The translations under genes and the position numbers were made by a program. Of a stretch of DNA of 64,000 nt, positions 32,664 to 35,912 are shown piece after piece (the first letter of the stretch is position 1; each line of letters opens with the position of its first letter). Source of the DNA: Yersinia vastinensis. GTDB taxonomy: Bacteria > Pseudomonadota > Gammaproteobacteria > Enterobacterales > Enterobacteriaceae. The DNA is taken from NCBI RefSeq assembly GCF_902726565.1, contig NZ_CACVAF010000006.1, forward strand, positions 124,001 to 188,000, written 5' to 3'. The notes below the pieces were generated by a model. It made no database searches, was not told the origin of the DNA, and saw only the letters and a program-made list of their open reading frames with translations.

Positions 32664-32678
32664 TGTTATATTGTATCA
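32664..32678 (+). promoter_or_regulatory. candidate Zur box of the metal ABC operon
   Basis: TGTTATATTGTATCA matches 12 of 15 positions of the perfect dyad TGTTATAATATAACA found upstream of rpmE2 in this window. It lies about 26 nt before the small ORF and 164 nt before the ATPase start. This implies repression when zinc is sufficient. Confidence 0.55.
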
Positions 32679-32704
32679 ATTGTGGCTATGTGTTTCTTTC
32701 CGAT

Positions 32705-32845
32705 ATGAATAGATTATCTGCCTGGCTTAACTTTTTTTCTTACAGAACCCTGTTTTCACTTTCTTCATCATGGCGTGTTGCCGCCGTTGCACCGCTTTGC
32801 ATATTGCTATGGTGCGCTATTTATTGGGCTAATGTACTGCCATGA
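32705..32845 (+). CDS. putative 46-residue membrane protein coupled to the metal ABC operon
   Basis: Small frame beginning MNRLSAWLNFF and ending with a hydrophobic Trp-rich segment (VAAVAPLCILLWCAIYWANV), consistent with one membrane helix near the C-terminus and Arg/Ser-rich residues before it. Its TGA overlaps the ATG of the ATPase gene (ATGA), the same arrangement as between ATPase and permease, which favours translation. The frame is open back to an ATG at 32660, but that precedes the candidate Zur box and would lie upstream of transcription. No clear ribosome site was seen. Not recognised as a known family. Confidence 0.45.
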   Translation: MNRLSAWLNFFSYRTLFSLSSSWRVAAVAPLCILLWCAIYWANVLP

Positions 32846-33576
32846 TAAATTTGAGAAATATCGAAATTGGATATGAGCAGCATGCTCTCACTCCTCCTAT
32901 CAATGGTTGTTTTTTGGCCGGGTCTTTGACTGCCATCATTGGAGCAAATGGCACGGGAAAATCAACACTACTCAAAACATTGGCAGGTTTACAACCAACA
33001 GTCAGTGGCCAAATAGCATTCACTGGCGGTAAAGCCCCACAAATTGCCTATCTTCCCCAACAGGCTGAATTAGATAAGCAGTTTCCTATTGCTGTCCAAG
33101 ATGTTGTGGCGATGGGGTGTTGGCCGCAAAGTGGATTACTCGGTGGGATTAATCTTCAATCACGTCAACGAATCAAGCAGGCACTGAGTATTGTCGGTAT
33201 GCAGGATATGGCGCGGTGGCCCGTAGGGGAGCTTTCAGGTGGTCAGTTACAACGTGTGCTATTTGCTCGTCTGTTAGTCCAGCAGGCCCCCTTGATTTTA
33301 CTGGATGAGCCTTTTACCGGCATTGATAGCCATACACTGCAATTATTACTTGAGGTTATTCATCGGTTACATAATGAGGGGCGAACAATTATTGCAGTTC
33401 TGCACGATATGTCGATGGTCGCAGAACATTTTCCTCATGCATTGTGGTTAACCCCTCAGGGCTATTGTTGGCAATCATCTGAGCAGGTTTTAGCGCAATG
33501 GCATCACTCTCACCATTCATCTTGTGCACTTTCCTCGTTGGACCTACATGAACCATTGAGAGTGATGAACTCATGA
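32842..33576 (+). CDS. metal (probably zinc) ABC transporter ATPase
   Basis: 244-residue ATPase of the metal-chelate/cluster 9 type (ZnuC/YfeB-like). Walker A GANGTGKST is near residue 34, signature LSGGQLQ, Walker B LILLDEPF, and switch His in VLHDMS. The C-terminal tail contains an unusual histidine cluster (WHHSHHSSC, about residues 220-228). The ATGA overlaps at both ends place it in a tight operon with the small ORF upstream and the permease downstream. Zinc specificity is inferred from the Zur-like box and the neighbouring Zn-sparing ribosomal genes; manganese or iron remain possible. Confidence 0.88.
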   Translation: MINLRNIEIGYEQHALTPPINGCFLAGSLTAIIGANGTGKSTLLKTLAGLQPTVSGQIAFTGGKAPQIAYLPQQAELDKQFPIAVQDVVAMGCWPQSGLLGGINLQSRQRIKQALSIVGMQDMARWPVGELSGGQLQRVLFARLLVQQAPLILLDEPFTGIDSHTLQLLLEVIHRLHNEGRTIIAVLHDMSMVAEHFPHALWLTPQGYCWQSSEQVLAQWHHSHHSSCALSSLDLHEPLRVMNS

Positions 33577-34430
33577 TTTTGCTTCATTTACTTACCGACC
33601 CTTTTATCGATTTCGGTTTTATGCGCCGAGCTTTGATAGCTTGTTTAGCATTGTCACTAAGTTCAGCTCCTTTGGGCGTTTTCTTATTATTACGTCGCAT
33701 GAGTTTAGTCGGCGACGCTTTGTCCCACGCAGTATTGCCCGGAGCAGCCATCGGTTATTTGATTTCAGGGATGTCACTGGTCGCCATGGGGATAGGGGGC
33801 TTTATTGCTGGGCTGGCCGTTGCCATGATGTCTGGATGGGTCAGTCGGCGAACACTCTTAAAAGAAGATGCCAGTTTTGCCGGCTTCTATCTTGGCTCTC
33901 TGGCCTTAGGGGTGACGCTGGTATCACTGCGGGGGTCCAGTATGGATCTGCTCCATGTGTTATTCGGTTCTATTCTGGCCGTTGATACCAGCGCCATGGC
34001 GATGGTCGGCATCATCACTACATCATCCATGTTGGTACTCGCGGTTATTTATCGCGCACTGGTGGTTGAATCGTTCGATCCTGTCTTTTTGCGCGTCAGT
34101 ATGGGCCGTTGGTTGATGGTGGTCCACGCACTATTTTTGTCACTGGTGGTACTCAATCTTGTGGCTGGGTTCCAGATCCTTGGCACCTTGATGTCAGTCG
34201 GGTTAATGATGTTGCCGGCAGCTAGTGCGCGTTTTTGGGCTAAAAATCTACCCCAAACTCTGGGCGTAGCCATGCTAATTGGCATGATTGCCAGCATTGT
34301 TGGCTTGCTCTGGTCTTATTACGCCTCATTACCCGCCGGACCGGCAATTGTGCTGAGTGCCAGTCTGATTTTCTTTTTATCTATTCTATTTGGAACGCGA
34401 GGTGGCGTTTGGGTCACTGCGCGCCGTTGA
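33573..34430 (+). CDS. metal ABC transporter permease
   Basis: 285-residue ABC-3 family inner-membrane permease with about eight or nine hydrophobic helices; the segment SLVGDALSHAVLPGAAIGY is the family signature. Its ATG overlaps the TGA of the ATPase gene. It delivers the ion released by the binding protein encoded next. The family (ZnuB/YfeC/TroC) moves Zn, Mn or Fe. Confidence 0.9.
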   Translation: MILLHLLTDPFIDFGFMRRALIACLALSLSSAPLGVFLLLRRMSLVGDALSHAVLPGAAIGYLISGMSLVAMGIGGFIAGLAVAMMSGWVSRRTLLKEDASFAGFYLGSLALGVTLVSLRGSSMDLLHVLFGSILAVDTSAMAMVGIITTSSMLVLAVIYRALVVESFDPVFLRVSMGRWLMVVHALFLSLVVLNLVAGFQILGTLMSVGLMMLPAASARFWAKNLPQTLGVAMLIGMIASIVGLLWSYYASLPAGPAIVLSASLIFFLSILFGTRGGVWVTARR

Positions 34431-34458
34431 GAAGTACCTGTCATTAAAGGAGAGTAAA

Positions 34459-35337
34459 ATGAAGCGTTTACCTATCGCTTTGGCGGTGGCTGCCCTACTG
34501 TCAAGCCCATTGGCAATGGCCAAAACTGTTGAGGCCGTTGCCAGTTTTTCTATTTTAGGTGACATCGTCCAGCAGGTCGGGGGGGAGCATGTCAATGTCG
34601 TCACTTTGGTTGGAGCAGATGGTGATCCCCATGGTTTTGAGCCGACACCGAAAAATAGCAGGCAATTATCTAAAGCGGATGTGGTGTTTATCAGTGGGTT
34701 AGGGCTTGAGGGGTGGTTGGAGCGATTAATCAGTGCTTCAGGTTATAAAGGACAGGTTGTTATCGCATCAACTGGAGTCGACACTCGTAAAATGGATGAA
34801 GAGGGCAAAGTGGTGACTGATCCTCATGCATGGAACAGCATGGCTAATGGTATTAAATATGCCACCAATGTGATGAATGCATTAATTGTCGCCGATCCAG
34901 AAGATGCGGATTATTTTCGCAAACGGGGAGGGGAATATATTCAGCAGTTAGAAAAGCTGGATGCTTATGCCAAAGCCCAGTTTGCCGCGATCCCTGCCGG
35001 ACAGCGAAAAGTACTGACCAGCCATGATGCTTTTGGTTATTTTAGCCAGGAATATGGGGTTCGCTTTTTGTCACCAGTCGGATTTTCTACGGAGTCTGAA
35101 GCCAGTGCCAGTGGTGTGGCGGCACTGATTCATCAAATCAAGCAAGAGAAAATAAAAACATATTTCATTGAAAATCAGACGGATCCACGTCTGGTTAAGC
35201 AAATTGCTGCAGCCAGTGGCGCTAAAGCGGGTGGGGAACTGTATCCAGAAGCGCTGTCTGATGTAGGTGGCCCGGCTGCGACCTATGCTGAGGCGTTTAA
35301 GCACAATGTAGATACGATTGTGGGCAGTATGAAGTAG
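34459..35337 (+). CDS. metal ABC transporter substrate-binding protein
   Basis: 292-residue periplasmic cluster A-I binding protein (TroA/ZnuA/PsaA superfamily). A signal peptide covers about 1-21 (ends AMA). Metal-site candidates are His in GDPHGFEPTP, His in TDPHAWNS, His in LTSHDAFGYF and the Asp in YPEALSD. Unlike ZnuA there is no His-rich loop. AAGGAG lies 8 nt before the ATG at 34459; the frame upstream overlaps the permease end and is not used. Last gene of the operon; the hairpin at 35411-35437 is shared with the convergent rpmE2-rpmJ2. Confidence 0.9.
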   Translation: MKRLPIALAVAALLSSPLAMAKTVEAVASFSILGDIVQQVGGEHVNVVTLVGADGDPHGFEPTPKNSRQLSKADVVFISGLGLEGWLERLISASGYKGQVVIASTGVDTRKMDEEGKVVTDPHAWNSMANGIKYATNVMNALIVADPEDADYFRKRGGEYIQQLEKLDAYAKAQFAAIPAGQRKVLTSHDAFGYFSQEYGVRFLSPVGFSTESEASASGVAALIHQIKQEKIKTYFIENQTDPRLVKQIAAASGAKAGGELYPEALSDVGGPAATYAEAFKHNVDTIVGSMK

Positions 35338-35406
35338 TTGCAAGAATGAAGACAGTTCGGTCTCTGATTGATATCAGAGGCTGAATTTCAGTGCCTTTTA
35401 TGACAG

Positions 35407-35437
35407 AAAAAAGCCCCGTTGGGCAGCAACGGGGCTT
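35407..35437. terminator. terminator shared by the metal ABC operon and rpmE2-rpmJ2
   Basis: Stem AAGCCCCGTT / AACGGGGCTT with a 7-nt loop. On the minus strand it is followed by six T, making it a strong terminator for rpmJ2; on the plus strand the T tract is weak. Confidence 0.82.
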
Positions 35438-35460
35438 ATTCGTAGGCATATAACTCAACA

Positions 35461-35604
35461 TCAACGCTTTTTATGCGTACCTCCTTGAACCGCTTTAAAA
35501 CGTGGGTTGCTTTTGCAGATAACATACACCCGACCACGGCGGCGGACGATTTTACAATCGGGATGGCGGTTTTTTGCTGAACGTAATGAACTCAATACTT
35601 GCAT
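35461..35604 (-). CDS. rpmJ2: zinc-independent ribosomal protein L36 paralogue (L36B)
   Basis: 47-residue ribosomal protein bL36 of the Cys-minus type (YkgO): [17 protein letters not shown], then [17 protein letters not shown]. Only two Cys remain, so the zinc ribbon of the standard L36 is absent. It replaces the Zn-containing form when zinc is scarce. It starts 15 nt after rpmE2 in the same operon and therefore under the same Zur box. It is too short for most gene callers. Confidence 0.93.
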
Positions 35605-35619
35605 AATTAACTCTCAGAA

Positions 35620-35880
35620 TTAGCTGGCTTTTTTGGTCAAAAAACTACCGAAACGTTGATGGAAGCGTGCTGTGCTGCCCTCTTTTGAAAACTCTTTTTG
35701 TTTACCGGTGTAATACGGATGAGAAGCTGAAGAAATATCCAATGTGACATATGGATACGTCTGGCCATCGCGTTCAATCGTGCGTGATGTGGCTATGGTA
35801 GAGCCGACAGTGAAATAGGTGTCAGCGCTGGTGTCGTGAAAAACCACTGTCCGGTAGTTAGGATGGATGGCAGGTTTCAT
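35620..35880 (-). CDS. rpmE2: zinc-independent ribosomal protein L31 type B
   Basis: 86-residue bL31 type B (YkgM), lacking the CxxC zinc-binding pairs of RpmE: MKPAIHPNYRTVVFHDTSADTYF, then SSASHPYYTGKQKEF. Under zinc limitation it displaces Zn-L31 from ribosomes and frees zinc. The start at 35880 matches the family; the frame extends 11 codons upstream through the Zur box and is not used there. First gene of rpmE2-rpmJ2. Confidence 0.95.
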   Translation of the reverse strand: MKPAIHPNYRTVVFHDTSADTYFTVGSTIATSRTIERDGQTYPYVTLDISSASHPYYTGKQKEFSKEGSTARFHQRFGSFLTKKAS

Positions 35881-35897
35881 AAGAACTCCATTTGTTA

Positions 35898-35912
35898 TGT
35901 TATAATATAACA
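35898..35912 (-). promoter_or_regulatory. Zur box of rpmE2-rpmJ2
   Basis: Perfect 15-bp dyad TGTTATAATATAACA, 18 nt upstream of the rpmE2 start. It matches the core of the enterobacterial Zur consensus. Repression by Zn-Zur is expected. Confidence 0.85.

What the first reader, a model, noticed from the sequence alone, without database searches (positions are those of the whole stretch)
32664..35912. Two Zur-like boxes define a probable zinc-starvation locus: metal ABC operon convergent with Zn-free L31/L36 genes
The perfect dyad TGTTATAATATAACA lies 18 nt before rpmE2, and a 12/15 match lies just before the metal ABC operon. The two operons face each other across a shared hairpin terminator. 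Zn-free L31/L36 release ribosomal zinc and are classical Zur targets; the second box suggests that the ABC transporter imports zinc and is induced together with them. The transporter is separate from the standard znuABC arrangement and its binding protein lacks the ZnuA His-rich loop. A second zinc-uptake system beside the zinc-mobilising ribosomal genes would be a compact, little-described module.
Basis: partly seen in the sequence, partly recalled or inferred. Interest (0 to 1): 0.7.

Follow-up and report, generated by a model that had tools for sequence, protein, structure and literature searches.

The report
Zinc-starvation locus with hidden small protein
This Yersinia locus holds a zinc importer and zinc-free ribosomal proteins that a zinc sensor probably switches on together, and the importer operon seems to begin with an overlooked 46-residue membrane protein that accompanies this type of importer in many other bacteria.

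Summary
Both Zur-like boxes are there: the rpmE2 box is a perfect dyad, the other is 12/15 (13/15 on the opposite strand). The ABC operon is an orthologue of ZniCBA, a zinc importer already tested in K. pneumoniae and R. leguminosarum; the four zinc ligands of ZniA (H58, H123, H189, E264) are kept. Zur was footprinted at the rpmE2 (ykgM) promoter of Y. pestis. The convergent zni/rpmJ2-rpmE2 pairing occurs in 23 of 25 Yersinia genomes and in Serratia, Rahnella, Ewingella, Rouxiella and Erwinia.

The ORF is present in 59 of 59 distinct gammaproteobacterial zniC upstream regions examined and evolves as protein (dN/dS 0.095 in Yersinia). A profile of it finds relatives across Pseudomonadota just before zniC-type genes (53 of 53 best hits), though 16 of 55 ZniA-derived loci lack it; 18 of 49 listed members are rich in His. 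No Pfam or NCBIfam family matched. I read it as an overlooked fourth component of these importers. Its expression and role are inferred, not shown.

The parts
32664..32678 (.). Zur-like box before the zni operon; TGTTATATT at 32664-32672 (+) has the form of an extended -10 (TGnTATAAT)
   Evidence: the -10 reading is by eye, and the sigma-70 scan lists no promoter there
32705..32845 (+). unannotated small ORF, 46 aa, one predicted membrane span (provisional name ZniS); its TGA overlaps the zniC ATG as ATGA
32842..33576 (+). zniC, ABC ATPase (AztA-like), 244 aa
33573..34430 (+). zniB, ABC permease (AztB-like), 285 aa; start overlaps the zniC stop
34459..35337 (+). zniA, zinc-binding protein, 292 aa, ligands H58 H123 H189 E264
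35411..35437 (-). hairpin terminator-like for the rpmJ2 side; no T run on the zni side
35461..35604 (-). rpmJ2, type B (zinc-free) L36, 47 aa
35620..35880 (-). rpmE2 (ykgM), type B (zinc-free) L31, 86 aa
35893..35912 (.). Zur boxes of rpmE2: perfect dyad 35898-35912 and an overlapping dyad 35893-35907

Best explanation
Two convergent operons are repressed by zinc-loaded Zur and induced together by zinc starvation. One makes zinc-free L31 and L36, which can replace zinc-holding copies in the ribosome. The other is the zinc importer ZniCBA, whose first gene is an unannotated 46-residue single-span membrane protein (provisional name ZniS). Zur covers the promoter at the zni box; when zinc is short, zniS, zniC, zniB and zniA are read as one message, and zniC is probably translated by re-initiation at the overlapping ATGA. 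ZniA binds zinc with three His and one Glu, and ZniB/ZniC bring it in. ZniS lies in the membrane with its N-terminus inside, most likely bound to the importer; the His-rich N-terminal tail of many relatives suggests that it works where zinc leaves the permease. Shown here by sequence: genes, boxes, linkage, protein-level conservation of ZniS and its place before zniC. From published work on relatives: zinc import and Zur control. Inferred: co-transcription, translation, topology, partner and function of ZniS.
For: ZniA identity and ligands; AztA/B/C models far ahead of ZnuA/B/C; ZniCBA papers, passages only; Zur gene in the genome; Zur footprint at ykgM of Y. pestis, passages only; box in 59 of 59 upstream regions. 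ZniS: ORF in 59 of 59 distinct upstream regions; dN/dS 0.095 (21 Yersinia), 0.102 (8 Rahnella), 0.365 (5 Klebsiella-like), shifted frames 0.89-2.53 with stops; invariant R24 and W41 in 26 members; 53 of 53 profile hits at E <= 8e-4 before a zniC-type gene; in 70 ZniA-derived loci no hit at E <= 0.1 elsewhere; box 3-36 nt before the small ORF's ATG in 58 of 59; K/R 323 on the N side and 15 on the C side.
Against: No expression, binding or uptake data for this species. 16 of 55 ZniA-derived loci with zniC lack ZniS at E <= 0.5, so it is not needed everywhere. The window ZniS has no His tail and no clear Shine-Dalgarno sequence. The bare box pattern is not enriched genome-wide at 3 mismatches, and no standard sigma-70 promoter is listed at the zni box.
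Confidence: 0.78

Rival explanations
1. The small ORF is a leader cistron only: its translation delivers ribosomes to zniC, which has no evident ribosome site of its own, and the peptide itself has no function.
For: Stop overlaps the zniC ATG in most loci (+4 in 54 of 59); by eye no Shine-Dalgarno sequence before zniC in the 15 loci printed.
Against: Purifying selection on the amino-acid sequence; invariant R and W and a conserved membrane span in 26 members from alpha- and gammaproteobacteria; His-rich tails in 18 of 49. In several loci the stop lies 9-48 nt before the ZniC match, not overlapping. No unusual RNA fold (z 0.02) and no Rfam match.
Confidence: 0.2
2. The zni box is a chance A+T-rich match or a site of another regulator; only rpmE2-rpmJ2 is under Zur.
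For: The match is imperfect, and the pattern with 3 mismatches is not enriched genome-wide.
Against: Kept before zniC in 59 of 59 distinct upstream regions, with 15/15 matches to TGTTATANTATAACA in 8; R. leguminosarum zniCBA is reported as Zur-controlled (passages).
Confidence: 0.06
3. The importer mainly carries manganese or iron.
For: No His-rich loop in ZniA; constitutive ZniA raised cell Mn in K. pneumoniae (passage); a MntC model is the second-best NCBIfam match.
Against: Three His and one Glu at the ligand positions of zinc-bound ZniA; the own genome has a separate relative at C4:66720 with an ABC ATPase and permease nearby, 31% identical, which I take for YfeABCD by recall; the box is Zur-like.
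Confidence: 0.05

Closest known systems
ZniCBA of Klebsiella pneumoniae (PMC10797113; PDB 8SVC)
   Same: Gene order C-B-A, ZniA sequence and all four zinc ligands; no His-rich loop
   Different: In K. aerogenes and Enterobacter records zni lies between mltB and pncC, not beside rpmE2-rpmJ2; the passages I saw do not mention the small ORF
ZniCBA of Rhizobium leguminosarum (PMC12183173)
   Same: Second zinc importer, Zur-repressed, box 153 bp before zniC (passages)
   Different: No ribosomal operon reported beside it in the passages seen; small ORF not mentioned there. I did not examine this strain's DNA; a Neorhizobium locus has the ORF
AztABCD of Paracoccus denitrificans
   Same: Best NCBIfam models for all three proteins
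   Different: All three score below the Azt cut-offs; no aztD beside the window's operon in the ORF list; whether P. denitrificans has the small ORF was not checked
Zur-controlled ykgM-rpmJ2 of Yersinia pestis (PMC2706843)
   Same: Same ribosomal operon, same kind of box close to ykgM (passages)
   Different: The transporter is not among the three direct targets named there
Small single-span partners of membrane complexes such as KdpF, CydX, AcrZ (recalled, no call)
   Same: Tiny membrane protein encoded beside the complex it serves
   Different: No sequence link tested or found; I recall none for a zinc ABC importer, nor His-rich tails

Membership tests
ZniCBA zinc importer | ZniA with ligands His58, His123, His189, Glu264 | tested here: met
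ZniCBA zinc importer | Operon of ATPase, permease and binding protein on one strand | tested here: met
ZniCBA zinc importer | No His-rich loop in ZniA | tested here: met
   0 His in residues 59-122
ZniCBA zinc importer | Zinc uptake | not testable with these tools
   needs experiment
AztABCD | NCBIfam cut-offs of AztA, AztB, AztC | tested here: not met
   201.9 of 220, 253.1 of 280, 263.3 of 350 bits
ZnuABC | NCBIfam cut-offs of ZnuA, ZnuB, ZnuC | tested here: not met
   59.7 of 268, 96.7 of 284, 81.2 of 306 bits
Mn/Fe importer (Sit, Yfe, Mnt) | Two His and two carboxylate ligands (as stated in PMC10797113) | tested here: not met
   three His and one Glu
Zur-regulated operon | Zur-type dyad near the promoter, conserved in relatives | tested here: met
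Zur-regulated operon | Zur binding and derepression without Zur | not testable with these tools
   shown for relatives only (passages)
Zinc-free (type B) L31 and L36 | NCBIfam type B models over cut-off | tested here: met
   119 of 86 and 90.8 of 70 bits
Known small-protein families (for ZniS) | Match to a Pfam or NCBIfam model | tested here: not met
   window ZniS: none at E <= 10 in either library; three relatives: one NCBIfam match at E 0.57; four more against Pfam: weak matches at E 0.13 and 0.065 only

The most novel reading that the evidence does not exclude
ZniCBA/AztABC-type zinc importers are really four-part machines in many bacteria: a single-span subunit (ZniS), first gene of the Zur-controlled operon in alpha- and gammaproteobacteria and largely missed by annotation, binds the permease, and its cytosolic N-terminus, His-rich in many lineages, receives or gates zinc at the exit. 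His-rich tails sit either on ZniS (18 loci) or on the ZniC C-terminus (10 or more His in 12 loci) and in none of 95 loci on both, as if the zinc-catching tail can move between subunits.
Probability: 0.45. Interest if true: 0.75.

Novelty: new variant of a known kind. Interest (0 to 1): 0.62.

Why it matters
Zinc import under starvation matters for bacteria in hosts and soils, and ZniCBA/AztABC importers are being studied as systems of an ATPase, a permease and a binding protein. If a conserved small subunit exists, reconstitutions made without it are incomplete, promoter distances such as 'box 153 bp before zniC' need rereading, and a family of tiny membrane proteins gains a likely job that one in-frame deletion can test. 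The pairing with zinc-free ribosomal genes also gives a compact locus for zinc sparing plus zinc import in Yersinia, Serratia, Rahnella and Erwinia.

Tried and rejected
Considered and rejected: a ZnuABC duplicate; a Mn/Fe importer; a structured RNA leader in the gap (fold z 0.02; no Rfam match at gathering score); a longer ZniS from the in-frame GTG at 32660, which would begin before the Zur box and run through it. A sigma-70 scan lists no promoter at the zni box; only the extended -10 form, seen by eye, is left. A search for the Y. pestis ykgM box in 25 Yersinia genomes found none within 1 mismatch, so I cannot say whether any of them is of the Y. pestis/pseudotuberculosis group, nor whether that group has zni. 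A tblastn of one 35-aa member against plasmids found nothing at E <= 10, although two plasmid records hold such an ORF: the query is too short for that search. In Cupriavidus the name ZniCBA is used for an unrelated efflux system (passages). Paper searches for the small gene gave listings with no title or abstract on it; a small-membrane-protein method paper (PMC10903887) has no occurrence of zinc, ABC transporter, metal or Zur.

Rows dropped before counts: zniC upstream sequences were kept only if the ZniC match began at residue 1 or 2, at 42% identity or more, with at least 230 nt upstream, identical ones once (59 kept). Of 70 ZniA-derived phylum loci, 15 had no ZniC-like gene at 35% identity or more (several end at a contig end) and were left out (55 kept). 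Of 85 ZniA matches, 70 were fetched; the own match and 14 others from the own family were not refetched, most being.
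Full report
WHAT WAS CHECKED. TGTTATAATATAACA at 35898-35912 is the only exact copy in the 4.52 Mb genome, 17 nt from the rpmE2 start codon; a second dyad, shifted by 5 nt, overlaps it. The box at 32664-32678 matches 12/15 on one strand and 13/15 on the other. A matrix made from 18 distinct rpmE2 boxes of other genomes ranks it 3rd of 63,978 positions of the window, after the two rpmE2 dyads; 16 of 5000 shuffles of its 300-nt region reach the consensus score and 4 of 5000 the matrix score. 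In 59 distinct zniC upstream regions the best match to TGTTATANTATAACA is 12 in 3, 13 in 19, 14 in 29 and 15 in 8. Against it: with 3 mismatches the bare pattern is not enriched in the genome, and one of the 59 (L061) scores only 0.1 with the matrix.

WHAT THE GENES ARE. The ABC proteins belong to PF00005, PF00950 and PF01297. Their best NCBIfam models are AztA, AztB and AztC, all below cut-off; ZnuA, ZnuB and ZnuC score far lower. The binding protein matches K. pneumoniae ZniA (PDB 8SVC) at E 9.3e-117, and the ligands reported for that structure, His58, His123, His189 and Glu264 (section read), are present at the same positions. ZniCBA is a published zinc importer: passages and one section of PMC10797113 report that loss of both ZnuA and ZniA lowers zinc while single losses do not, and that zniA is induced by zinc limitation; passages of PMC12183173 report Zur-dependent repression of R. 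leguminosarum zniCBA, with a box 153 bp before zniC. RpmE2 and RpmJ2 pass the type B L31 and L36 models. Zur binding at this kind of promoter was footprinted in Y. pestis for ykgM (passages). This genome encodes Zur (325 bits, cut-off 167).

CONSERVED PAIRING. Of 25 Yersinia genomes, 23 have ZniA and 25 have RpmE2; in all 23 the two genes lie on the same contig within about 0.6 kb of each other (coordinates). Of 33 named loci, 28 carry rpmJ2-rpmE2 after zniA (Yersinia, Serratia, Rahnella, Rouxiella, Ewingella, Erwinia, and two unnamed Enterobacterales); the five without are a Sodalis, an Enterobacterales MAG and three Vibrio. In 17 stretches of about 5 kb from the order-wide search, 6 have the pairing and 11 do not; Enterobacter and Klebsiella records have zni between mltB and pncC. 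ZniA at E <= 1e-90 is found in 19 of 295 sampled genomes of the order. The two Yersinia genomes without zni keep a zniB-like fragment of 57 residues (E 1e-5) or zniA-like fragments of 63 and 21 residues (E 8e-7) between the same neighbours, which points to loss of the operon there; I only located them.

THE OVERLOOKED GENE. The box is 163 nt from zniC but 26 nt from an ATG at 32705 that opens a 46-codon ORF ending inside the zniC start (ATGA). The ORF is present in 59 of 59 distinct upstream regions (stop at +4 in 54, +1 in 4, -8 in 1), from Yersinia to Klebsiella-like genomes, Vibrio and a 1.2 Mb genome. It evolves as protein: over the last 32-34 codons dN/dS is 0.095 in 21 Yersinia, 0.102 in 8 Rahnella and 0.365 in 5 Klebsiella-like sequences; the shifted frames give 0.89-2.53 and contain stops. 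An alignment of 26 chosen members has invariant R24 and W41 (window numbering). In 107 members the most hydrophobic 19 residues are flanked by 323 K/R on the N side and 15 on the C side (N above C in 102, C above N in 1, ties 4), so the N-terminus is predicted inside.

HOW WIDE IT IS. A profile searched in 398 genomes of the phylum gave 53 listed hits at E <= 8e-4. I looked at all 53: each lies before a zniC-type gene on the same strand, within about 100 nt of the ZniC match (30, one, 22). Hits above that E-value were followed up only where they fell in stretches fetched for other reasons; many must be chance. Of 70 loci found through ZniA alone, 55 have a linked zniC; 37 of 55 have the ORF at E <= 0.1, with no hit elsewhere in the 70 loci, and 39 of 55 at E <= 0.5, with 2 hits elsewhere. 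The 16 without fall in two groups of 8 in a quick tree of 88 loci (2 changes; long-branch warnings for L232, L191, L200, L248 and for the join of one group of 8 with L248). In 7 of 8 of one group the ORF that overlaps zniC shares the motif MFCEDAARRL instead; I did not identify it. Six own-genome control loci, znu and yfe included, give no hit at E <= 0.1 except the zni locus itself, in the part of the table printed. In the 59 gamma loci the box precedes the small ORF's ATG by 3-36 nt in 58; the exception, L054, has an extra upstream ATG. In 48 other loci 34 have a match of 12/15 or better, against 6 of 960 shuffled 400-nt stretches; in 2 of the 34 it lies after the ATG I chose. So the ORF looks like the first gene of the Zur-controlled operon. 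Annotation: 'uncharacterised protein' in K. aerogenes, 'hypothetical protein' in Thioclava; not listed for Enterobacter hormaechei, Neorhizobium and Bartonella although the ORF is there, but that gene table is incomplete by its own description. The window ZniS and the relatives tried gave no convincing Pfam or NCBIfam match.

A CLUE TO FUNCTION. Of 49 members listed, 18 have five or more His, mostly in N-terminal HSHGHDH-like tails (with the stricter start and E limits, 16 of 107). In those 18 loci ZniC has at most 2 His after residue 200, while 12 other loci have 10-14 there; none of 95 has both. With related genomes this is weak statistics, but it fits a zinc-holding tail on the cytosolic side that can sit on either subunit. 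The window ZniS has no such tail; its ZniC ends with a small HHSHH cluster.

MECHANISM. Shown by sequence: both boxes, the genes, the linkage, the coding nature and placement of the small gene. From relatives: zinc import and Zur control. Inferred: co-transcription, re-initiation at ATGA, N-in topology, binding to ZniB, action at the zinc exit. A pure leader-cistron role remains possible (about 0.2).

NOVELTY. Transporter, box and ribosomal operon are known kinds. I found no description of the small gene (passages) or of the zni/rpmE2 pairing; only open-licence papers were searched, seen as listings, passages or single sections. I call it a new variant of a known kind, with a fair chance of a real new subunit.

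Noticed in passing
own genome C7:220305-220319 (L002:1501-1515): Zur-like box TGTTATAACATAACA right at the start of a DUF1007 gene followed by a NiCoT-like gene; by recall this resembles the ZevAB zinc system of Haemophilus, a likely further Zur target.
   Followed up: partly
own genome C13:10618-10632 (L007:1501-1515): Zur-like box TGTAATAGTATAACA 32 nt before a zinT gene (368.5 bits, cut-off 300).
   Followed up: partly
L110 and L111 (two Yersinia genomes without zni): Short zniB-like or zniA-like fragments remain between the same neighbours: the operon seems to have been lost there. Described only.
   Followed up: partly
window 35893-35912: rpmE2 carries two overlapping dyads 5 nt apart; the second also scores 11-13 of 15 in the relatives listed, perhaps a site for two Zur dimers.
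   Followed up: partly
L225-L230, L238-L240 and others: Some ZniC-like ATPases end in His-rich tails with 10-14 His (12 of 95 loci).
   Followed up: partly
L184, L186, L187, L190, L194, L202, L209: Where ZniS is missing, another ORF with the motif MFCEDAARRL overlaps the zniC start as ATGA; identity not tested.
   Followed up: no
L056 (Erwinia persicina): rpmJ2-rpmE2 lies about 1.3 kb after zniA instead of the usual 0.06-0.2 kb, so something sits between the convergent operons.
   Followed up: no
L107 (genome G177, 1.2 Mb): A much reduced genome keeps zniCBA, the small ORF and a box, but has no RpmE2 match at E <= 1e-18.
   Followed up: no
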